Positions 1,191-27,366 of a DNA stretch of 42,461 nt are shown one piece after another. The translations under genes and the position numbers were made by a program. Numbering within the stretch: the first letter of the stretch is position 1; every line of letters starts with the position of its first letter. The DNA is from Chloroflexota bacterium (GTDB taxonomy: Bacteria; Chloroflexota; Dehalococcoidia; Lucifugimonadales; GCA-2719675): the NCBI GenBank assembly GCA_002719675.1, contig PBID01000018.1, positions 1-42,461 of the forward strand, written 5' to 3'. Below the pieces are notes generated by a model. It saw only the letters and a program-made list of their open reading frames with translations. It did no database searches and was not told the origin of the DNA.

Positions 1191-1244
1191 ATAGCATTTG
1201 CGATATTGCGATTTGACTATCGTTAATCTTTCAGATACAAATTA

Positions 1245-1273
1245 TTGACATATATTACAATTGTAATTATATT
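1245..1273 (+). promoter_or_regulatory. Strong sigma-70-type promoter candidate upstream of the lipoprotein gene
   Basis: A perfect TTGACA (1245-1250), a 17-base spacer, then TATATT (1268-1273). The predicted transcript starts near 1280 and would carry a leader of about 165 bases before the ATG at 1448. That leader contains inverted repeats and an intrinsic terminator. Confidence 0.6.
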
Positions 1274-1385
1274 TAATACTATGTTAATCAGATTTAAAGA
1301 CGATTTATTTCACTTGTGTAGTAGCCCTTTATAGGGCAGTAATTCAACATGTGTAATTAAAATCTGAATTATTAAACATGTTATG

Positions 1386-1412
1386 CCCGTTCAAATTCGA
1401 ACGGGTTTTTTT
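1386..1412 (+). terminator. Intrinsic terminator inside the leader of the lipoprotein gene
   Basis: CCCGTTC (1386-1392) pairs perfectly with GAACGGG (1399-1405) around a six-base loop and is followed at once by seven T. It lies 36 bases before the start codon and downstream of the promoter at 1245. It therefore either ends a small RNA of roughly 130 bases or acts as an attenuator of the lipoprotein gene. Confidence 0.65.
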
Positions 1413-1447
1413 ATTTCCGAAAATCAAAATGCTAAAGGAGTATTGAA

Positions 1448-2800
1448 ATGTATTTTAAATCTTTATCATCGGGATTTGTATTAATCCTACTGATGGTCTT
1501 TGCTACAGTAGTAGCGTGTGCAAAAGACCAAGAACCAGCGAAGCCTGCAGCAGCTGAAGAGTCTTCATTTGAGGTCTGGGCGGTTGACCAGTCGAGCACT
1601 GGTAGCTACGGAACTGGTGGACTCATATACATATGGGACGGGGCTGACATCTCTGCAAATGCTAGCGAAGCAACTCCAGAGATTATCGATCTAGCTAAGG
1701 CAGCTGTCGAAGCAGGTTGCGAAGCTCCCAAAAAGCCACACATGGTACTTTCTAACCATACCACTCCCAAGGCTAGCCACGTGGTCCTAGCCAATGTAGG
1801 TTCTGGTGACACCTTTTTTATAAACATTGAGAGCCGTACTATCGTTGGCTGTGTCAACACAATCGGTGGTTTCAATGGAGAGGGTGGAACAGCAAATGCA
1901 CACGCCTCCGTTGCATCTCCTGACAACAGTATAGCTATAGTCGCGAATATTGGCGCAAAAGGTGAGTCCGGATTCCTGCATAAAATTCATACTGATTACA
2001 CCAATGATGATTACAAATTGGTAGAGACGTTGTCATTGGACCAATTCTCCAGTGAATTAGGAACTTCAGTAACACGACCTATCTGCCACGAGTTCACTGA
2101 AGACAGTAAATTCGCATACGTAACTCTAGCTGGTGGTGGTCTGCTAGTGGTAGATGTGGGTTCTTCAGACGGAACAACACCTATGACTGTCGTGAAAGTA
2201 TATGACAAAGATACCGTTCCAGGTATCGGCTGCGGCGTGTCTCGTCTCCCAGAGGGCAAGATAATGACCAATGGCGAGAGTGGAGCTAAAGGAGGAGATG
2301 ATTTCCTATATACCTTTGATGCTAGTAAAGCTGCCGACGGAGTATTCCCAGATCCAGTGCAAATTGAACTCCCAGGTGAAGATACACATGGTGCGGTTAC
2401 CTGTACTGATAAAAACGGCAACTTATTTGCAATAACAAGTATGCGAGTCAGTAATGACGTCAACTTCGTAGACCTCCAAACCAATACGGTTGTAGGGACT
2501 CAGTCGATGTCCGCATCCTTCAGCGAGGATCCAAAGCCCGACGTGGCAGATATAGTGGGCAACAAGATGTTCATTGCTTTGAGAGGTGCTAAACCACTAA
2601 CAGCTATCGGTGCACTTGAGTTCGCTGGTAGAACTCCAGGTGTAGCTGTTTTAACCATCAATGATGATTGTAATGGTTTCAGTTGGGAATCGAAGGATCT
2701 TGCTTCAATGAAAGACCCTGTCAGGCTGGTTGATGGAATTTTCCCTGGACAGAAAATAACGGCCGCCGACCCACACGGTCTTGAAGTGATAATAAAATAA
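1448..2800 (+). CDS. Secreted lipoprotein with beta-propeller-like repeats
   Basis: A 450-residue protein with a lipoprotein signal peptide: basic/hydrophobic start, then VVAC with C24 as the lipidated cysteine, followed by an A/E/P-rich linker. The mature part is rich in beta-strand repeats of the kind in YVTN/WD-like propellers, such as YVTLAGGGLLVVDV near residue 225. It has several cysteines (C90, in GCVNTIG, PICHEF, GIGCGV, VTCTD and DDCNGF) that could form disulfides or bind metal. I cannot name a function. The start has AAAGGAG at 1434-1440. Codon use is clearly richer in G and C than in the flanking genes, which suggests high expression or transfer. Confidence 0.75.
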   Translation: MYFKSLSSGFVLILLMVFATVVACAKDQEPAKPAAAEESSFEVWAVDQSSTGSYGTGGLIYIWDGADISANASEATPEIIDLAKAAVEAGCEAPKKPHMVLSNHTTPKASHVVLANVGSGDTFFINIESRTIVGCVNTIGGFNGEGGTANAHASVASPDNSIAIVANIGAKGESGFLHKIHTDYTNDDYKLVETLSLDQFSSELGTSVTRPICHEFTEDSKFAYVTLAGGGLLVVDVGSSDGTTPMTVVKVYDKDTVPGIGCGVSRLPEGKIMTNGESGAKGGDDFLYTFDASKAADGVFPDPVQIELPGEDTHGAVTCTDKNGNLFAITSMRVSNDVNFVDLQTNTVVGTQSMSASFSEDPKPDVADIVGNKMFIALRGAKPLTAIGALEFAGRTPGVAVLTINDDCNGFSWESKDLASMKDPVRLVDGIFPGQKITAADPHGLEVIIK

Positions 2801-2821
2801 GAATTTTTAACGGTCAAATTA

Positions 2822-2856
2822 GCGTCTCGTGGGTCGGACTCCGATCCATGAGACGC
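2822..2856. repeat. Long perfect-stem hairpin downstream of the lipoprotein gene
   Basis: GCGTCTC (2822-2828) pairs with GAGACGC (2850-2856), and the inner sequence continues the pairing (with two G-U pairs) almost to a three-base loop, giving a stem of about 16 bp. There is no T run on either side, so it is not a classical intrinsic terminator. It may protect the 3' end of the lipoprotein mRNA or be a Rho-linked terminator. Confidence 0.55.
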
Positions 2857-2959
2857 CACCAATAAGGAAAGCTTAAGTGATGCTTCTAAGTATGAGAGTT
2901 TTATGCAATTTCGATTCAAAATACATAACAAATTTTTAAAATAAATAGGAATATCAACA

Positions 2960-3445
2960 ATGAATACAATCAATAATGTGTTTAGTTTTCCAAATCCAGT
3001 AAACGAATTCTCAGCTAGGTTTGTTGCAGGAATGGTTGTGATTTTGACAATTGCAACAATTTTAACTCAAAATCAATTCGTCGCAGGATTCTTGTTGTAC
3101 GGATTTCTTGCAAGAGTCGCGACTGGTCCAACTTTGAGTCCCATGGGCTTGCTTGCAACAAAAGTAATTGTGCCTGCATTAGGCAACCCTACTAAATTGG
3201 TAGCAGGACCTCCCAAGCGCTTTGCACAAACTATTGGATTGATTTTTTCAACAACTGCTTTCATCATGCTTATACTTGATTTAATATTAGCATTTCAGAT
3301 CACCTTAGCTATTTTAGTTGTATTTGCAATATTAGAATCCGTAGTAGGATTCTGTGCAGGTTGTTTTGTATTCAACTACCTTATGAAATGGAAAATAATA
3401 CCACAATCAATATGCGAAAGTTGTATTACAGGTGTAGAAGAGTAA
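2960..3445 (+). CDS. DUF4395-family membrane protein
   Basis: A 161-residue integral membrane protein with about four hydrophobic segments. It carries the marks of the DUF4395 family: an N-terminal FPNPVNEFSARFVAG, a central ATGPTLSPMGLL, a GPPKRFAQ loop, and a late GFCAGC motif whose paired cysteines recall thioredoxin-like redox partners. The biochemical role of the family is not established. In other bacteria it often sits with thiosulfate/sulfur or thioredoxin genes; none is next to it here. A ribosome site (AGGAA) precedes the ATG. Its stop is two bases from the stop of the convergent small gene at 3448. Confidence 0.75.
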   Translation: MNTINNVFSFPNPVNEFSARFVAGMVVILTIATILTQNQFVAGFLLYGFLARVATGPTLSPMGLLATKVIVPALGNPTKLVAGPPKRFAQTIGLIFSTTAFIMLILDLILAFQITLAILVVFAILESVVGFCAGCFVFNYLMKWKIIPQSICESCITGVEE

Positions 3446-3447
3446 AA

Positions 3448-3705
3448 CTAGTCATCAAATCCAAAAAAAGTATTCAAGATCCATTCTATCCAACCCACAG
3501 TACCTTCTATTCGAAATCTCTCATCTATTAATGTCAACCATATCAATGGACTATCACAGACACTACCGCCCATTATACACGCAACTAAACTCGCTACATA
3601 AACAAAAACCGTCAAAGCAATAATCAGAAAAATTATTGCTAATAATATTAAAGAAAAACAACCCCATCGCCTAAGTCTTTTTTTACATTCATAATTACAA
3701 AACAC
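3448..3705 (-). CDS. Small membrane protein coupled to the DUF4389 gene
   Basis: 85 residues: a basic N-terminus with two cysteines (FCNYECKKRLRRWGC), one long hydrophobic stretch at about residues 17-45, then a soluble tail. The start is GTG at 3703-3705, one base after the TAA of the upstream DUF4389 gene, an arrangement typical of translational coupling; no in-frame ATG offers a plausible alternative. No family recognised. Because it is tied to the DUF4389 protein, a shared membrane function is likely but unproven. Confidence 0.55.
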   Translation of the reverse strand: MFCNYECKKRLRRWGCFSLILLAIIFLIIALTVFVYVASLVACIMGGSVCDSPLIWLTLIDERFRIEGTVGWIEWILNTFFGFDD

Positions 3706-3706
3706 C

Positions 3707-4015
3707 TTACCTGTTGAAAGTAAAAGGAGGATATTTATCTGTTAGCCCAATAAGCCAACAATTTACACGCAAATTCCAACGTATAACTCCAACTTGTAAG
3801 GCAAATAAACCTCGTGGATATTTGCCAGTAATAATTACTAAAATATATCCCACCAAAGCCATCAACAATGCAATTATATTTAAGAAATAAAGCACAATAT
3901 AATGCGGTAAAAGTGCAACTGGTTTTAGTATAAACAGTATTGCCAGCAAGCGCGAAGAAGATTCTGGATATTCTACTTCACAATTGGCAAAGTAAGTATT
4001 TTTTAATTTAGACAT
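3707..4015 (-). CDS. DUF4389-family membrane protein
   Basis: 102 residues with two transmembrane segments. The C-terminal signature is that of DUF4389 proteins: ITGKYPRGLFALQVGVIRWN followed by TDKYPPF. The family often occurs as longer multi-domain proteins, and this is the single-unit form. Molecular role unknown. AGGAG six bases before the ATG supports the start, and a TATACT box in a conserved context lies 48 bases upstream. It is first in a two-gene leftward unit with the small membrane protein. Confidence 0.7.
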   Translation of the reverse strand: MSKLKNTYFANCEVEYPESSSRLLAILFILKPVALLPHYIVLYFLNIIALLMALVGYILVIITGKYPRGLFALQVGVIRWNLRVNCWLIGLTDKYPPFTFNR

Positions 4016-4062
4016 TAGGAACTCCTTTCAATAGAACATAAAAGATACCAAATACCTCACAG

Positions 4063-4090
4063 AGTATATACCACATTGCGATCTCAGGAG
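4063..4090 (-). promoter_or_regulatory. Conserved upstream element with TATACT box (copy 2)
   Basis: The partner of the element at 1163-1190. Reading leftward, GATCGCAATGTGGTA runs into TATACT (4063-4068), 48 bases before the ATG of the DUF4389 gene. Only these two copies were noticed in the window. Confidence 0.45.
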
Positions 4091-4127
4091 CCTGTCGATC
4101 TTCGATATTTACGATATTACTTGCTCG

Positions 4128-4280
4128 ATGTACAATATGCTTATTATGTATAAGTTAATAACAAGGTTAATAGCATATTCCTTATTAGCCCTAGTGGCTA
4201 TATCACCTTTTGGAGGGATATACTTCAGTTGGTTCTTCGATCGGAAGAAGAAGGCAAAATTAAACCAATCAGCTACTTAA
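4128..4280 (+). CDS. Possible small membrane peptide (44-50 aa)
   Basis: An open frame in an otherwise empty gap. In-frame ATGs lie at 4128, 4137 and 4146; the shortest form has 44 residues (MYKLITRLIAYSLLALVAIS and on), with one hydrophobic segment ending in FSWFFDRKKKAKLN and a TAA at 4278-4280. The layout (short cytoplasmic start, one membrane span, aromatic belt, basic tail) is that of real small membrane proteins. Against it: no ribosome site at a good distance, and AAG/CGG codons rare in the neighbours. The rest of the 4016-4641 gap holds the leftward promoter element, a short tandem repeat and a tRNA gene. Confidence 0.3.
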   Translation: MYNMLIMYKLITRLIAYSLLALVAISPFGGIYFSWFFDRKKKAKLNQSAT

Positions 4281-4312
4281 GCCAGTTTGAGTTATCTGCA
4301 AAAATACCCCAT

Positions 4313-16742: not shown

Positions 16743-17873
16743 ATGATTATTGATTCACATACATATTGTTTTAAATCTGTAAATAATTCAAATGACTATA
16801 GAAATAAATCTGAACATTTAAATTGGATACAGCAAGCTAATGCTCAACATCATCAACCAGCTATAAAAATTTCAGATAGAAGCCCTCAAAAAAACAACGG
16901 ATTATCATCTAAAAAAAACAAATTCTCAGATCTACCTAAAGTAAATTTTAGAATAGACAACAAAACAGGAAGAGTACTTTGGGATTTCAACAATGAAACA
17001 TTTACAAAATATTATTATCCTCCTAATTTACTCAATTTAGAATTTTCTGCTTACAGCCTAATTTCAGAAATGGACTATGCTGGAATTGACATCGCAATTT
17101 TACACACAAATCCAAGTTTAGGTAAAAGTAACGAATTTCAATCCGAATGTATCAAACTATTTCCAGACAGATTATTATCCATGGCTTCTGTAGATGAATG
17201 GCTTATAGAAAATCAAACAGAACAAATCATTGAAAAAACAATTCATTCAATAAAAAACTTAAACCTTAATGCAATTAAATTTAATCCATTATGTTATTTG
17301 GAAAGTAATACTCCCTGGGATTCAGGTAATTTCATTCATTTCTGGGACGAAATTACAAAACTTGGGGTCCCGATATTTTTCACATTAGGTACTGGTCCAA
17401 ATTTCGATTCTCAAAATAAATCAAGTCAAAATTCATTAAAAGGATATTTCAACGAATTAAAAATATTAATTAATTGGATGCACAAATATCCGAATATAAA
17501 ATGTACCATCACCCACGGCTTTCCTTGGAGACTATTAATGAATCAATCTAAAATTGAATTGCCAAAAGAACTTTGGGAACCATTTCAAAATCCACTACTA
17601 AATATGGAAGTTTGTTTCCCTGTTCGCATAGGAGATATTATAGATTATCCTTATAAAGAAATTTGGCCGACATTGACTGAATTAATTAACAAAATTGGTT
17701 CTGAAAGACTCCACTTCGGAACTGACATGCCATTTCAAAATAGATTTTGCACATATTCTCAATCTAAAAAATGGATAGAATATAACTACAAAAATTTCAC
17801 AGGAATGTCAAAATATGACCTGGAAATGATAATGGGTGGAACTGCAAAAAAACTTTTAGACATCAAATCATAG
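16743..17873 (+). CDS. Amidohydrolase-2-like protein with altered metal site
   Basis: 376 residues with the TIM-barrel pattern of amidohydrolase-2 proteins: MIIDSHTYCF at the start, ITHGFPW near 257 and HFGTDMPF near 325. The first metal motif would normally be H-x-H but here it is H6-x-Y8, and the histidine expected on the fifth strand is replaced in FFTLGTG (about 213-218). H258 and D328 remain. A long insertion at about 20-75 is rich in N, K and S. It may bind metal differently or be a non-hydrolytic relative. Probably co-transcribed with the GH4 gene; its end overlaps the convergent SDR gene by 11 bases. Confidence 0.72.
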   Translation: MIIDSHTYCFKSVNNSNDYRNKSEHLNWIQQANAQHHQPAIKISDRSPQKNNGLSSKKNKFSDLPKVNFRIDNKTGRVLWDFNNETFTKYYYPPNLLNLEFSAYSLISEMDYAGIDIAILHTNPSLGKSNEFQSECIKLFPDRLLSMASVDEWLIENQTEQIIEKTIHSIKNLNLNAIKFNPLCYLESNTPWDSGNFIHFWDEITKLGVPIFFTLGTGPNFDSQNKSSQNSLKGYFNELKILINWMHKYPNIKCTITHGFPWRLLMNQSKIELPKELWEPFQNPLLNMEVCFPVRIGDIIDYPYKEIWPTLTELINKIGSERLHFGTDMPFQNRFCTYSQSKKWIEYNYKNFTGMSKYDLEMIMGGTAKKLLDIKS

Positions 17874-18639
17874 AGTGGCTCTGTCCACCATCTATCACAA
17901 TGCAAGATCCTGTAAGAATTCCTAATCTATCAGAAGATAAATATGACACTAAATCTCCTACTGGTTCTGGCCAACCAAACTTACCCATCGGCAAGTTATT
18001 TGATATAAAATCAGCTACCACATCTTTAGAATTTTCGTTTTGAAACCTTTCCCAAGTCCCTCTCTCATGAGCAATCGATCCTGGCGCAATACTATTTACT
18101 AAAACACCGTCTTTTGCTAATGATACAGCTGCATGTTTAGTCATTGAAATCAAGGCAGATTTTGACGCCATATATGAAATATTACCTCCATATTCTCTCC
18201 CCCAAATTGAAGCAATATTAATTATTCTTCCCCATTTTTTATTTTTCATCTCTGGAGTTACAAGCTTCATCATTTCAAATGCTCCAAATAAATTCAAATC
18301 AAAAGTCTGCCTAAAACCCTCCAAAGAAGTACCTGAAAAATCTTCTCTAACTTTAGACCCACCAACATTATTCACTAATATATCTATAGTTCCAAATTGT
18401 TCCAATATAACATTATATGTATCTTCTAATTTTGATAAATCAGAGATATCAACAATAAATCCTTTAGAGTCAACACCCAGACTTTTTATTTCTTGAACTG
18501 TTTGATTTAAGTCTAATTCAGTTCTGCCACATATAGCTACATTGACTCCTTCTTTTGCGAGAGAAATAGCTGCAGCTTTTCCTAATCCTCTACTTCCTCC
18601 AGTAACTAAAGCAAACTTTCCTTTTATACCAAGATCCAT
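17863..18639 (-). CDS. Short-chain dehydrogenase/reductase
   Basis: A classical SDR of 258 residues. NAD(P)-binding TGGSRGLG at 13-20, NNVGG at about 90-94, and the catalytic set S144, Y156, K160 (YMASK) are intact, with the C-terminal IVIDGGQS. The start is the ATG at 18637-18639, with GAGGAG ten bases upstream; a TTG further out (18657) overlaps that ribosome site and is not likely. Substrate unknown; the context is carbohydrate metabolism. The upstream region is one copy of the duplicated intergenic sequence and carries a TTGACA box (18704-18709) and TATAGT (18683-18688) facing this gene. Confidence 0.9.
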   Translation of the reverse strand: MDLGIKGKFALVTGGSRGLGKAAAISLAKEGVNVAICGRTELDLNQTVQEIKSLGVDSKGFIVDISDLSKLEDTYNVILEQFGTIDILVNNVGGSKVREDFSGTSLEGFRQTFDLNLFGAFEMMKLVTPEMKNKKWGRIINIASIWGREYGGNISYMASKSALISMTKHAAVSLAKDGVLVNSIAPGSIAHERGTWERFQNENSKDVVADFISNNLPMGKFGWPEPVGDLVSYLSSDRLGILTGSCIVIDGGQSHSMI

Positions 18640-18648
18640 GTGGTAATA

Positions 18649-18791
18649 ACTCCTCAACTCAAATTTAAGATGTGATTTTGAAACTATATCTTAAAGGGAA
18701 TAATGTCAATGCTATCCAGTTAATTAAAGCAATAAAATCCAACAAACATATATGATAAACTAAAGCCGTTTATAACAAAACCTTAATAATT
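18649..18791. repeat. Direct repeat A: duplicated intergenic region left of the dehydrogenase gene
   Basis: This 143-base stretch is repeated in the same orientation at 20145-20283. The copies differ by five substitutions and one four-base gap, and the last 61 bases are identical. The left edge includes the ribosome site of the leftward SDR gene, and the right edge ends 17 bases before the ATG of the rightward gene at 18809. It seems to be a two-way promoter region. Confidence 0.9.
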
Positions 18792-18808
18792 GATAGGAGG
18801 GGACAAAA

Positions 18809-20074
18809 ATGGGTCTGGATCAACCTATCTCCGTAGCTTTGATCGGTGCTGGAAATCGTTCCCAAAAGGTATACAAGCCTCTTATAAATGAGATTAAGCC
18901 ATGGGTTAACTTGGTAGCTGTGTGCGATCCCATTCGCGAAAACGCTGATAGTTTAGCCGAATCTTTAGGTGTCCCAGCATTTTACGACATAAAAGAACTC
19001 GTTAAATCCCGTCCAATGGAAGCAGCTTTCGTTGTCACTCCAGTTCCATCACATCATTCGATTGCCATATATTTGATGTCAAATGGTATTAACGTAAACG
19101 TAGAAACAAGCATGGCTACATTACTGGTTCAGGCTCAGGAAATGGTGGATACAGCCCGTGATAACGATGTTATCTTAAGAATTGGAGAAAACTTTTTTCG
19201 ACAACCTTTTGACAGGTTAATAAGACTGATCAATCAAGATGGATTTATAGGTCCAATTAAGCGACTTACATGTTGGCACGATCATACTGGATATCACAAC
19301 AACTCACGTTGGCTCTCATTTTTTCAATCCTATCCGATTGCAGCACAGGCTATAACACATACAATGCCAACTGCGGATCATTACCAAATGCCTCACAGAT
19401 TGTTTGATAACGAGACTTATAAAGCACATTTCTACTGGTTTCCAAATAATGAACTGGTAATCGATCATGCGGGTAACATCAAGAGTATGCTAGGTAGATA
19501 TCCCCGTCCGGGATATACAGAACTCGCGGGGGCTCGCGGATCAATCGTCCAACAAGCTGGCAAAAAAAATGCTGCCAAACAACCGTATCAGGGTTGGGAA
19601 GGACTTGGTGAAGTCAGATACTGTAGTGATGAATCCCTACAACAACATGGGAAAAGTGGAGTTGCTGATCAGGTATTTCCGATCGTACACTCAAGTGATA
19701 ACCATGATTGGTTGTCTTCTCATGTAGATTTACCTACCGGTCGCGTAGAATATGTAAATCCACATCGACCTGGAAAATCTGCATACCATCATGGTAATTA
19801 CTATAGCGCAGCAGTCATGGATCACATCATAGACTTTGCTGAGACCATACGTCTTGAAAAAAAATCGGAATACACTGACCAAGACGCACTCATGGCCATG
19901 ATGATGGAAGTTGCAACACGTGATTCTGCTATTAAAAACGGTGAACGTTTAAGTCTGCCACTGAAAGGTGAATCAGAAAGTGATGTCCTTATGAGAACTA
20001 AGCAAAGGCAAGAGTATGGTGTTGATCCTCTCGATGTGGAAGGAATGTTGGCAATTAAATTCCCTCGCCCTTAA
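18809..20074 (+). CDS. Gfo/Idh/MocA-type oxidoreductase lacking the EKP motif
   Basis: 421 residues. The N-terminal Rossmann fold has ALIGAGNRSQ at 10-19 and a downstream TPVP. Where the family has EKP, this protein has E99-T100-S101 (NVNVETSMA), so the lysine that contacts nicotinamide and substrate is gone. The C-terminal half is rich in histidines (HDHTGYH, THTMPTADHY, HHGNYY) and may bind metal. An excellent ribosome site (AGGAGGGG) precedes the ATG. Codon use is richer in G and C than in its neighbours, and the gene lies between two copies of one intergenic region. It looks like an inserted or independently acquired gene; substrate unknown. Confidence 0.8.
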   Translation: MGLDQPISVALIGAGNRSQKVYKPLINEIKPWVNLVAVCDPIRENADSLAESLGVPAFYDIKELVKSRPMEAAFVVTPVPSHHSIAIYLMSNGINVNVETSMATLLVQAQEMVDTARDNDVILRIGENFFRQPFDRLIRLINQDGFIGPIKRLTCWHDHTGYHNNSRWLSFFQSYPIAAQAITHTMPTADHYQMPHRLFDNETYKAHFYWFPNNELVIDHAGNIKSMLGRYPRPGYTELAGARGSIVQQAGKKNAAKQPYQGWEGLGEVRYCSDESLQQHGKSGVADQVFPIVHSSDNHDWLSSHVDLPTGRVEYVNPHRPGKSAYHHGNYYSAAVMDHIIDFAETIRLEKKSEYTDQDALMAMMMEVATRDSAIKNGERLSLPLKGESESDVLMRTKQRQEYGVDPLDVEGMLAIKFPRP

Positions 20075-20144
20075 AATAGTTAATCCCAGATTACCTTCAA
20101 TAACTATACGAAATGAAATGTCAAAGCATGAAATTAAAATCAAT

Positions 20145-20283
20145 ACTCCGCGACTCAAATTTAAGATGTAATTTTGAAACTATTAAAGGGAATAATGTCA
20201 ATGCTATCTAGTTAATTAAAGTAATAAAATCCAACAAACATATATGATAAACTAAAGCCGTTTATAACAAAACCTTAATAATT
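20145..20283. repeat. Direct repeat B: duplicated intergenic region right of the dehydrogenase gene
   Basis: Second copy of the sequence at 18649-18791, 139 bases long. It ends 12 bases before the ATG of the epimerase gene at 20296. It lacks four bases where copy A has the leftward -10-like box, and the SDR ribosome site is altered, so only the rightward function seems kept. No leftward gene remains beside it. Confidence 0.9.
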
Positions 20284-20295
20284 TGGAAATATTAA

Positions 20296-21132
20296 ATGTC
20301 TAAAAAACCAAAAGTATTAGTTACAGGAGCGAGTGGTTTAATCGGAGGTCTCATATGGAAAAATCTAGGACATAAATATGAATTTTCTGGTCTGAATAGA
20401 AGCCCTCTTAAAGAAATCCCAACAACTCAAGCAGATATAACAAATTTAAATGAAATAATGCCTGCTTTCGAAAATATAGACATGGTTGTTCATATGGCAA
20501 ACCATACGAAAGATGCTAATGACTGGGAAAAACATTCATCAGTTGGAATGTTAGGAACAAGAAATGTTTATGAAGCTTCTATGCTAAATGGTGTAAAACG
20601 AATCGTCTTAGGAAGTACAGGAGACACCATGACTGGATATGAAATGGAATATCCATATGGAGAACTCGCAGCAGGTAAATATGACTCAGTTAAAGCTCCT
20701 TGGAAAATGATCACTGAAAAAGATCCTACACGTCCCAAAAGTGTTTACGGAGCATGCAAAATATTTTGTGAAGCTTTAGGTCATTTTTATTCAGATCGCT
20801 ATGATATTTCAATAATATGTATCAGACTAGGTTTAGTACACATTAGTAACAAGCCTTTTTTGAGAAGACAATTACCTGGTTTTTTGGATCAAAATGATTG
20901 TGTGCAAATTATAGATCTATGTTTAAGCGCACCAAAATCAATTAAATTCGATGTTTTTCATGCAAGTTCGAATAACAAATATGCATGGAGAGATTCTCAA
21001 CACGCTAAAGATGTCTTAGATTGGAATCCTACTGGCAGTGCTGAAATGCATGAAATCCAAGATGCTGGCGGATGGCACCAAGTTTTAGAAGACGAACAAA
21101 AATTAAGACGCAAACCTGAACAACAAAATTAA
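20296..21132 (+). CDS. NAD-dependent epimerase/dehydratase (extended SDR)
   Basis: 278 residues with GASGLIGG at 11-18 for NAD binding, HMANH at about 66-70, S107/T108 and Y151-x3-K155 (YGACK) as catalytic residues. The general form resembles uronate dehydrogenases and sugar epimerases of the extended SDR group. The upstream region is repeat B, so it likely has the same rightward promoter as the gene at 18809. Substrate not assignable. Confidence 0.85.
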   Translation: MSKKPKVLVTGASGLIGGLIWKNLGHKYEFSGLNRSPLKEIPTTQADITNLNEIMPAFENIDMVVHMANHTKDANDWEKHSSVGMLGTRNVYEASMLNGVKRIVLGSTGDTMTGYEMEYPYGELAAGKYDSVKAPWKMITEKDPTRPKSVYGACKIFCEALGHFYSDRYDISIICIRLGLVHISNKPFLRRQLPGFLDQNDCVQIIDLCLSAPKSIKFDVFHASSNNKYAWRDSQHAKDVLDWNPTGSAEMHEIQDAGGWHQVLEDEQKLRRKPEQQN

Positions 21133-26361: not shown

Positions 26362-27366
26362 TTGACTCTAAATTTATCAAATAGACCAATACTTGAAGTA
26401 CAAAATTTAAAAATGTATTTCCCTGTATCAACTGGTAACATCTTCAAGCGTCAAACTGGTGAAATAAAAGCTGTAGATGATGTGAGTTTTTTTATTAGAG
26501 AAGGAGAAACTCTTGGATTAGTTGGTGAAAGTGGCAGTGGCAAAACAACTATAGGAAAATGTATCCTTCAATTGAACCAATCTACAGCAGGTGAAATCAT
26601 GTTTGAAGGACAAAGACTTGTTGGAATGAAACAAAATGAACTAAAACAAATAAGAAAAAAACTTCAAGTAATTTTTCAAGATCCTTATGGTTCTCTTAAC
26701 CCAAGAATGACTTGTGGAGATACAATTGGAGAACCATTAAAAGTCCATAAAATAACTAAAACAAAAAAAGAATATCAAGAAAAAATTGCTTCTTTACTAG
26801 ATATAGTTGGATTAAGTCCATATATGGCTAATAGATATCCTCATGAATTTAGTGGTGGTCAAAGGCAACGAATAGGTATTGCAAGAGCACTTGCTGTATC
26901 GCCCAGTTTAGTAATTTGTGATGAACCAGTATCTGCTTTAGATGTTTCGATTCAAGCACAAATAATCAACTTACTGGAAAGTCTTCAAAAAACCCTAAAA
27001 CTAACCTATTTGTTTATAGGACATGATTTATCTGTTATTAGACATATTAGCGATAGAATAGCTGTAATGTATCTTGGACATATAGTAGAAATAGCAGATA
27101 AAGGAGAACTATATACAAACCCACTACACCCATACACTAAAGCTTTATTATCAGCTGTTCCAATACCAGATCCCCTGAAAGAAAAAGAAAGAAGTAGAAT
27201 AATTATTGAAGGAGAATTACCAAGTCCCCTAAACCCTCCTTCAGGATGTGTTTTCCATACAAGATGCCCCATAGCTGAATCAGCTTGCTCAACACATATA
27301 CCCCAATTACAAGAAGTCAGCCCTAATCACTGGGTTTCATGTTTCTTAACACCTGGTTATAAATAA
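26362..27366 (+). CDS. Opp/Dpp-family ABC transporter ATPase (OppF type)
   Basis: 334 residues. Walker A GESGSGKT at 55-62, Q-loop VIFQDPYGSLNPRMT, signature FSGGQRQRIGIARAL, Walker B VICDEPVSALD, and a C-terminal extension with CVFHTRCPIAESAC. The VIFQDPYGSLNPRMT region is typical of the OppF partner. Start is TTG at 26362 with AGGA upstream; it follows the OppD-type gene by 10 bases, so the two are co-translated in a pair. Confidence 0.93.
   Translation: MTLNLSNRPILEVQNLKMYFPVSTGNIFKRQTGEIKAVDDVSFFIREGETLGLVGESGSGKTTIGKCILQLNQSTAGEIMFEGQRLVGMKQNELKQIRKKLQVIFQDPYGSLNPRMTCGDTIGEPLKVHKITKTKKEYQEKIASLLDIVGLSPYMANRYPHEFSGGQRQRIGIARALAVSPSLVICDEPVSALDVSIQAQIINLLESLQKTLKLTYLFIGHDLSVIRHISDRIAVMYLGHIVEIADKGELYTNPLHPYTKALLSAVPIPDPLKEKERSRIIIEGELPSPLNPPSGCVFHTRCPIAESACSTHIPQLQEVSPNHWVSCFLTPGYK

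What the first reader, a model, noticed from the sequence alone, without database searches (positions are those of the whole stretch)
18649..20283. Dehydrogenase gene bracketed by two copies of one intergenic promoter region
The 143 bases at 18649-18791 recur at 20145-20283 with five substitutions and one four-base gap; the last 61 bases are identical. The copied piece runs from the ribosome site of the leftward SDR gene to just before the start of the rightward gene. Between the copies is one gene (18809-20074) whose base composition differs from both neighbours. Copy A keeps a TTGACA/TATAGT pair facing the SDR gene; copy B has lost four bases there and no longer has a leftward gene. This suggests that a gene entered together with a duplicated bidirectional promoter, giving each rightward gene its own copy. 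It is not the pattern of a known transposon, since no inverted ends or transposase are present.
Basis: partly seen in the sequence, partly recalled or inferred. Interest (0 to 1): 0.72.

Follow-up and report, generated by a model that had tools for sequence, protein, structure and literature searches.

The report
Foreign gene inserted with copied promoter
In a marine SAR202-type bacterium a foreign enzyme gene was inserted between two resident genes together with a second copy of the promoter region that lay there, so all three genes kept or gained a promoter; the same arrangement occurs at two other sites in this genome and a sister species, which suggests a repeatable way for compact genomes to take in single foreign genes.

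Summary
In detail: 18649-18791 and 20145-20283 are direct copies (93.7 %) around one Gfo/Idh/MocA gene with GC 0.42 (neighbours 0.35). The sister species (SAR202 OSU_TB36) has the same SDR-epimerase pair with ONE copy of the spacer, and a genome from another family has the pair with one short spacer, so the gene was inserted here together with a duplication of the promoter region. The finding is also wider than reported. Among all local noncoding repeats in this genome and 1.03 Mb of the sister there are 7 direct and 0 inverted pairs, and the three strongest have one architecture: promoter copy - higher-GC gene - promoter copy - resident gene, with an empty site in the other species (143, 136 and 71 bp duplicated). 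In the second case the insert matches a 754-bp segment of a genome from another family (86.7 % DNA identity), essentially exactly between the copies, and both junctions show 4-5 bp of microhomology. Best explanation: illegitimate, probably microhomology-guided insertion of short foreign fragments. Insertions that duplicate the spacer survive because they leave both neighbours' promoters intact and give the newcomer one. No transposase or terminal inverted repeats were found. Expression is untested.

The parts
18649..18791 (.). Copy A of the duplicated intergenic region: keeps the leftward SDR promoter (TTGACA 18709-18704, TATAGT 18688-18683, minus strand) and supplies the region upstream of the inserted gene
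   Evidence: single copy in sister G001
18792..20144 (+). Inserted unique segment (1353 bp), essentially one gene with short flanks
   Evidence: absent at this place in G001; G001 homology of the gene unit ends near 20100
18809..20074 (+). Inserted Gfo/Idh/MocA-type oxidoreductase gene, 421 aa, GC 0.42
   Evidence: PF01408 E 1.7e-19; only NCBIfam matches far below cut-off; ortholog only in G001 among 250 genomes of the order; 62-67 % identical homologues in other Chloroflexi and Trueperaceae MAGs
20145..20283 (.). Copy B of the duplicated intergenic region, upstream of the epimerase gene; its leftward promoter spacer is cut from 15 to 11 nt by a 4-base deletion
18749..18765 (+). TATATGATAAACTAAAG in copy A; the 17-mer occurs in the two genomes only in A, in B and upstream of the G001 copy of the inserted gene
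20241..20257 (+). The same 17-mer in copy B
17863..18642 (-). Resident SDR gene (leftward partner), 259 aa
   Evidence: PF00106/PF13561; 94 % identical and syntenic in G001
20296..21132 (+). Resident NAD-dependent epimerase-type gene (rightward partner), 278 aa
   Evidence: PF01370; orthologs in G001 (88 %) and, with a divergent SDR, in G027 (74 %)
4031..4309 (.). Site next to tRNA-Lys where G001, but not the window, carries the orthologous dehydrogenase gene beside a UxuA-like gene and an unknown gene

Best explanation
A short foreign DNA fragment carrying essentially one gene was joined into the promoter region between two divergent resident genes by illegitimate recombination. One end was joined at the right edge of the region, just before the epimerase start. 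The other end was joined back at the left edge, just before the SDR start, so the whole 143-bp region was duplicated. Template switching at short microhomologies, or joining between sister chromosomes, would do this in one event. The result is SDR <- [A] -> dehydrogenase - [B] -> epimerase: the SDR keeps its promoter in A, the epimerase keeps its promoter in B, and the newcomer sits behind A. In compact genomes with ~150-bp spacers, insertions that duplicate the spacer are the ones that harm neither neighbour and express the newcomer, so selection retains them. SHOWN: duplication; single copy in the sister and in an outgroup; foreign composition and sparse distribution; two further cases of the same architecture; a near-exact donor segment and short microhomologies in one of them. 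INFERRED: the one-step joining mechanism, that A drives the new gene, and selection as the filter.
For: Empty site with one spacer in G001 and one spacer in G027. Gene GC 0.42 against a genome mean of 0.33; only about 4 % of genes of 150 aa or more reach 0.39. Ortholog in 2 of 250 genomes of the order; dS to the G001 copy 0.33 against a median of 0.90 for 703 orthologs (9th percentile). Same architecture at G000 C9:26426-26561/27303-27438 around gene X2 (GC 0.39) with an empty site in G001 C18, and at G001 C8:69007-69076/69780-69850 around gene X3 (GC 0.43) with an empty site in G000 C3. Local noncoding repeats: 7 direct, 0 inverted. X2 occurs, among 59 related genomes, only here and in G003 of another family; the 754-bp G003 match covers C9:26561-27313, i.e. 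the insert, and the junctions share TCCTG and ACTTT with the native spacer.
Against: Microhomology is readable only in the X2 case; in the GFO and X3 cases the true donor is not at hand and the junctions have drifted. The upstream region of the G001 copy of the gene resembles copy A more than shuffles do, which a simple one-way insertion into this lineage does not predict. The A/B differences could reflect a divergent donor rather than decay. No expression data.
Confidence: 0.66

Rival explanations
1. The insertion is older than the split of the two species. G001 lost the gene from this site by recombination between the two spacer copies, which restores a single spacer exactly; the excised spacer-gene unit, or a relative of it, then came to sit by tRNA-Lys.
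For: The region upstream of the G001 gene scores 45 against copy A, with 0 of 2000 shuffles reaching it, and holds the 17-mer found otherwise only in A and B. B's left flank reads CATGAAATTA, as the G001 SDR start region does.
Against: A and B differ by about 6 %, against about 18 % between A and the G001 spacer, so the duplication looks younger than the species split unless gene conversion kept the copies alike. dS of the gene between the species is below typical.
Confidence: 0.2
2. Additive (Campbell-type) integration: a donor strain already had spacer-gene fused, and a circular or looped piece of it integrated by homologous recombination in the spacer, so the two copies differ because one is the donor's.
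For: Gives exactly spacer-gene-spacer; copies differ by 6-10 % in each of the three cases.
Against: Needs a donor in which the foreign gene already lay behind this spacer. For X2 the relative found (G003) has the gene in another context, and homology ends at the insert. Three separate spacers would each need such a donor.
Confidence: 0.13
3. Insertion first, then promoter capture by tandem duplication: the gene landed without a promoter, and a later tandem duplication plus a deletion placed a promoter copy before it.
For: Tandem duplication by illegitimate recombination is a documented way to activate transferred genes (PMC11111574).
Against: Needs two or three events, and an intermediate in which a resident gene has lost its promoter; no remnant of a second gene copy is seen at any of the three sites.
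Confidence: 0.08
4. Assembly artefact joining two strains or a repeat.
For: The genome is a fragmented draft (19 contigs); no reads could be checked.
Against: The exact shared run is 61 bp, while exact overlaps between contig ends reach 116-119 bp. The copies are distinguishable, and the same architecture appears in a second genome.
Confidence: 0.03

Closest known systems
Promoter capture of transferred genes by tandem duplication (Li and Bock 2019, cited in PMC11111574; Anderson and Roth 1978)
   Same: A silent or foreign gene becomes placed behind a resident promoter through duplication by illegitimate recombination.
   Different: Here the duplicated piece is only the spacer and it brackets the inserted gene; the resident genes on both sides keep their own promoters; found as natural insertions rather than under drug selection.
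Microhomology-mediated template switching (MMBIR/FoSTeS) and short-patch double illegitimate recombination (from memory; the latter term was not found in the library)
   Same: Foreign sequence joined at both ends by a few bases of microhomology; no transposase needed.
   Different: Microhomology shown in one case only.
Homology-facilitated illegitimate recombination (PMC3240628)
   Same: Small linear DNA integrated with at least one illegitimate junction.
   Different: No long homology between donor and target was found on either side for X2. No ComEC hit in G000 or G001, so natural competence is not indicated.
Transposon or IS insertion with target-site duplication
   Same: Direct repeats flank the insert.
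   Different: Duplications of 71-143 bp that differ in length and sequence at each site, no terminal inverted repeats, no transposase.

Membership tests
DNA transposon / insertion sequence | Terminal inverted repeats at the ends of the insert | tested here: not met
   no inverted pair at 18792/20144; the pairs listed lie within the spacer copies or inside genes
DNA transposon / insertion sequence | Transposase encoded in the insert | tested here: not met
   the only gene is a Gfo/Idh/MocA oxidoreductase; the X2 and X3 inserts hold one gene each with no Pfam match
DNA transposon / insertion sequence | Target duplication of constant short length | tested here: not met
   143, 136 and 71 bp in three cases
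Site-specific integrative element | Integrase in the insert and one common attachment sequence at all sites | tested here: not met
   single non-integrase genes; the three spacers are unrelated, each recurring only at its own site
Retro-insertion | Reverse transcriptase in the genome | tested here: not met
   no RVT_1 match in G000 or G001
Microhomology-mediated insertion (template switching) | A few identical bases shared by donor and target at each junction | tested here: inconclusive
   met in the X2 case (TCCTG and ACTTT); not readable for GFO and X3
Promoter capture by duplication | Inserted gene lies directly behind a copy of a resident promoter region in the same orientation | tested here: met
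   GFO, X2 and X3: start codons 17, 18 and 6 nt beyond the end of the spacer copy
Promoter capture by duplication | The copied promoter drives the captured gene | not testable with these tools
   needs RNA 5'-end mapping

The most novel reading that the evidence does not exclude
This lineage has a dedicated or strongly favoured process that installs single foreign genes behind freshly duplicated resident promoters (for example a nick-and-fill machinery acting at promoter regions), so that promoter duplication is part of gene uptake itself and not a by-product sorted out by selection.
Probability: 0.12. Interest if true: 0.82.

Novelty: new variant of a known kind. Interest (0 to 1): 0.52.

Why it matters
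How foreign genes that arrive without a working promoter become expressed, and how streamlined genomes with short spacers accept new genes without breaking their neighbours, are open questions. Here three natural insertions, in two sister genomes, show the same solution, and it leaves a readable signature: direct copies of one spacer around one gene of odd composition, with an empty site in a relative. That signature can be searched for in any pair of related genomes, which makes the question countable.

Tried and rejected
Idea that the tRNA-Lys site of the window keeps a remnant of the G001 UXU/dehydrogenase spacer: weak (24 of 2000 shuffles reach it), not used. Idea that X3 in G000 carries the G001 spacer upstream: not seen (829 of 1000 shuffles reach the score). 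G001 C12:149073-150033 gave an overlap of 42 bp but no repeat on inspection; dropped. Smaller direct-repeat pairs (C11 2795/3442, C2 1329/1929, C2 1090/2352, G001 C18 29247/30240) were not counted as confirmed cases because no clean empty site was available. 522 kb of other loci gave one direct and one inverted local noncoding pair, too few to judge how general the pattern is. Scans of metagenome contigs were not available. The literature term 'short-patch double illegitimate recombination' is not in the library.

Full report
WHAT WAS CHECKED. The repeat is real. Copies A (18649-18791) and B (20145-20283) align with five substitutions and one four-base gap, and the last 61 bases are identical. 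There are exactly two copies in the 1.40-Mb genome. The gene between them (18809-20074) is a 421-aa Gfo/Idh/MocA-type oxidoreductase with GC 0.42, against 0.35 for the SDR and epimerase genes on either side. No terminal inverted repeats and no transposase are present.

EMPTY SITE AND POLARITY. The only other held genome of the genus, G001 (same coordinates and contig length as VFGW01000004.1, SAR202 cluster bacterium OSU_TB36), is syntenic over the window. It has SDR - one spacer (C4:21756-21886) - epimerase with nothing between. G027, another family of the order, has the same divergent pair (epimerase 74 %, SDR 41 % identical) with one spacer of about 145 bp. The single-spacer pair is therefore ancestral and the insertion derived. 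Read against G001, B carries three of the five substitutions and the gap, A carries one, and one is undecided. The SDR promoter TTGACA-N15-TATAG(T/C) can be read in A, in the G001 spacer and in G027; in B the deletion cuts the spacer to 11 nt. This is what relaxed selection on B's leftward half predicts, since B has no leftward gene.

WHERE THE GENE CAME FROM. Among 250 genomes of the order an ortholog exists only in G000 and G001; homologues at 62-67 % identity occur in other Chloroflexi and Trueperaceae MAGs. In G001 the gene lies 14.5 kb away, between a UxuA-like gene and tRNA-Lys; the corresponding place in the window (4031-4309) has none of these genes, and the UxuA-like gene is on another contig in G000 (C12:50847-51824). 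Synonymous divergence between the two copies is 0.33, against a median of 0.90 for 703 orthologs (9th percentile). Separate acquisition, or exchange after the species split, is more likely than simple vertical descent plus relocation, but this is not proven.

THE PATTERN RECURS. The whole G000 sequence and 1.03 Mb of G001 were searched for repeats 0.3-5 kb apart with both copies mostly noncoding: 7 direct pairs and no inverted pair. The three strongest share one architecture. (1) The finding. (2) G000 C9: 26426-26561 and 27303-27438 (136 bp, 90 %) bracket gene X2 (26604-27284, GC 0.39) between a SIMPL-domain gene and a signal peptidase gene; in G001 C18 the two genes share one spacer and the flanking alignments overlap by 111 bp. 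(3) G001 C8: 69007-69076 and 69780-69850 (71 bp, 90 %) bracket gene X3 (69183-69773, GC 0.43); G000 C3 has the empty site with a 78-bp overlap, and the G000 ortholog of X3 sits elsewhere (C14:16104-16697). In all three the newcomer starts 6-18 nt beyond a complete copy of the resident promoter region and in its orientation. Only about 4 % (G000) and 3 % (G001) of genes of 150 aa or more reach GC 0.39, so three such genes in the three strongest repeats is unlikely to be chance. Among other species-specific inserts of 0.4 kb or more, most have ordinary GC and no long target duplication, and many may be deletions in the sister.

MECHANISM. Case 2 is the most informative. X2 is absent from G001 and from 56 other relatives, but G003, a different family, has it at 89 % protein identity. 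The DNA match is 754 bp at 86.7 % and covers C9:26561-27313, i.e. the insert with a few bases of overlap into one copy. At the 5' junction donor and native spacer share TCCTG, at the 3' junction ACTTT (read by eye). A single event with two microhomology joins, the second one jumping back to the far edge of the spacer, explains insert and duplication together. Template switching, or joining between sister chromosomes, can do this; I cannot tell them apart. No reverse transcriptase and no ComEC was found in either genome, so retro-insertion and classical competence are not indicated. The duplicated pieces coincide with nearly whole spacers because, in my inference, only such insertions leave both neighbours with promoters and give the new gene one.

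WHAT DOES NOT FIT YET. Upstream of the G001 copy of the dehydrogenase there is a stretch that resembles copy A (score 45, 0 of 2000 shuffles), including a 17-mer found in the two genomes only there and in A and B. Either the gene once sat behind this promoter region before it reached its G001 place, or the region's similarity to the gene's own leader helped the insertion. B's left flank (CATGAAATTA) also matches the G001 SDR start region, which hints that the duplicated piece may reach the SDR start codon and be older than it looks. Gene conversion between A and B could hide age.

COMPARISON WITH THE KNOWN. Promoter capture by tandem duplication under selection is documented in laboratory evolution (PMC11111574), and illegitimate integration of linear DNA is known (PMC3240628). 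I found no report of natural, repeated single-gene insertions bracketed by a duplicated promoter region, but only a handful of literature searches were made, and only open-licence papers are held. I therefore call it a new variant of a known kind. The literature on SAR202 attributes most paralog diversity to duplication inside the group and notes some transfer (PMC6946804).

VERDICT. Observation confirmed, interpretation supported and extended. Interest 0.52: a clear, testable signature for how compact genomes take up single foreign genes, with a mechanism that is plausible but directly supported at only one of three sites.

Noticed in passing
window 1239-1423: About 185 bp upstream of a GC-0.46 gene of unknown family (1448-2800) recurs upstream of other genes at G000 C9:54111-54297 (89 %), C2:871-1059 (84 %) and C14:14350-14509 (74 %), and in G001. 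It holds the palindrome ATTACAATTGTAAT; it looks like a copied, regulated promoter region.
   Followed up: partly
window 1448-4015: These three genes are unusually close to the sister species (dS 0.04-0.28 against a genome median of 0.90), which suggests a recent exchange between the species up to the tRNA-Lys site.
   Followed up: no
window 4031-4309: The stretch before tRNA-Lys is unrelated between the two species: G001 has a UxuA-like gene, an unknown gene and the dehydrogenase there.
   Followed up: partly
L087:2861-3402 (G000 C11): A 155-aa gene on C11 is 96 % identical to G001 C5:4336-4803, while G000's own syntenic copy on C9 is only 87 % identical to it; 41-bp direct repeats (2795-2835, 3442-3482) flank it: possibly a between-species transfer by the same route.
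   Followed up: partly
G000 genome-wide (e.g. C9, C11, C2, C3): About 40 tblastn matches to a family of ~150-aa proteins that begin like lipoproteins in a 1.4-Mb genome; several are species-specific single-gene inserts.
   Followed up: no
G000 C1:1-8320 and C12:1-8320 (L077, L088): The ends of two contigs are 99.7 % identical over 8.3 kb in opposite orientation: a large inverted duplication or an assembly fork.
   Followed up: no
G000 C12:50847-51824 (L074): The UxuA-like gene (GC 0.47) that neighbours the dehydrogenase in G001 is a single-gene insert at another place in G000, without a long target duplication.
   Followed up: partly
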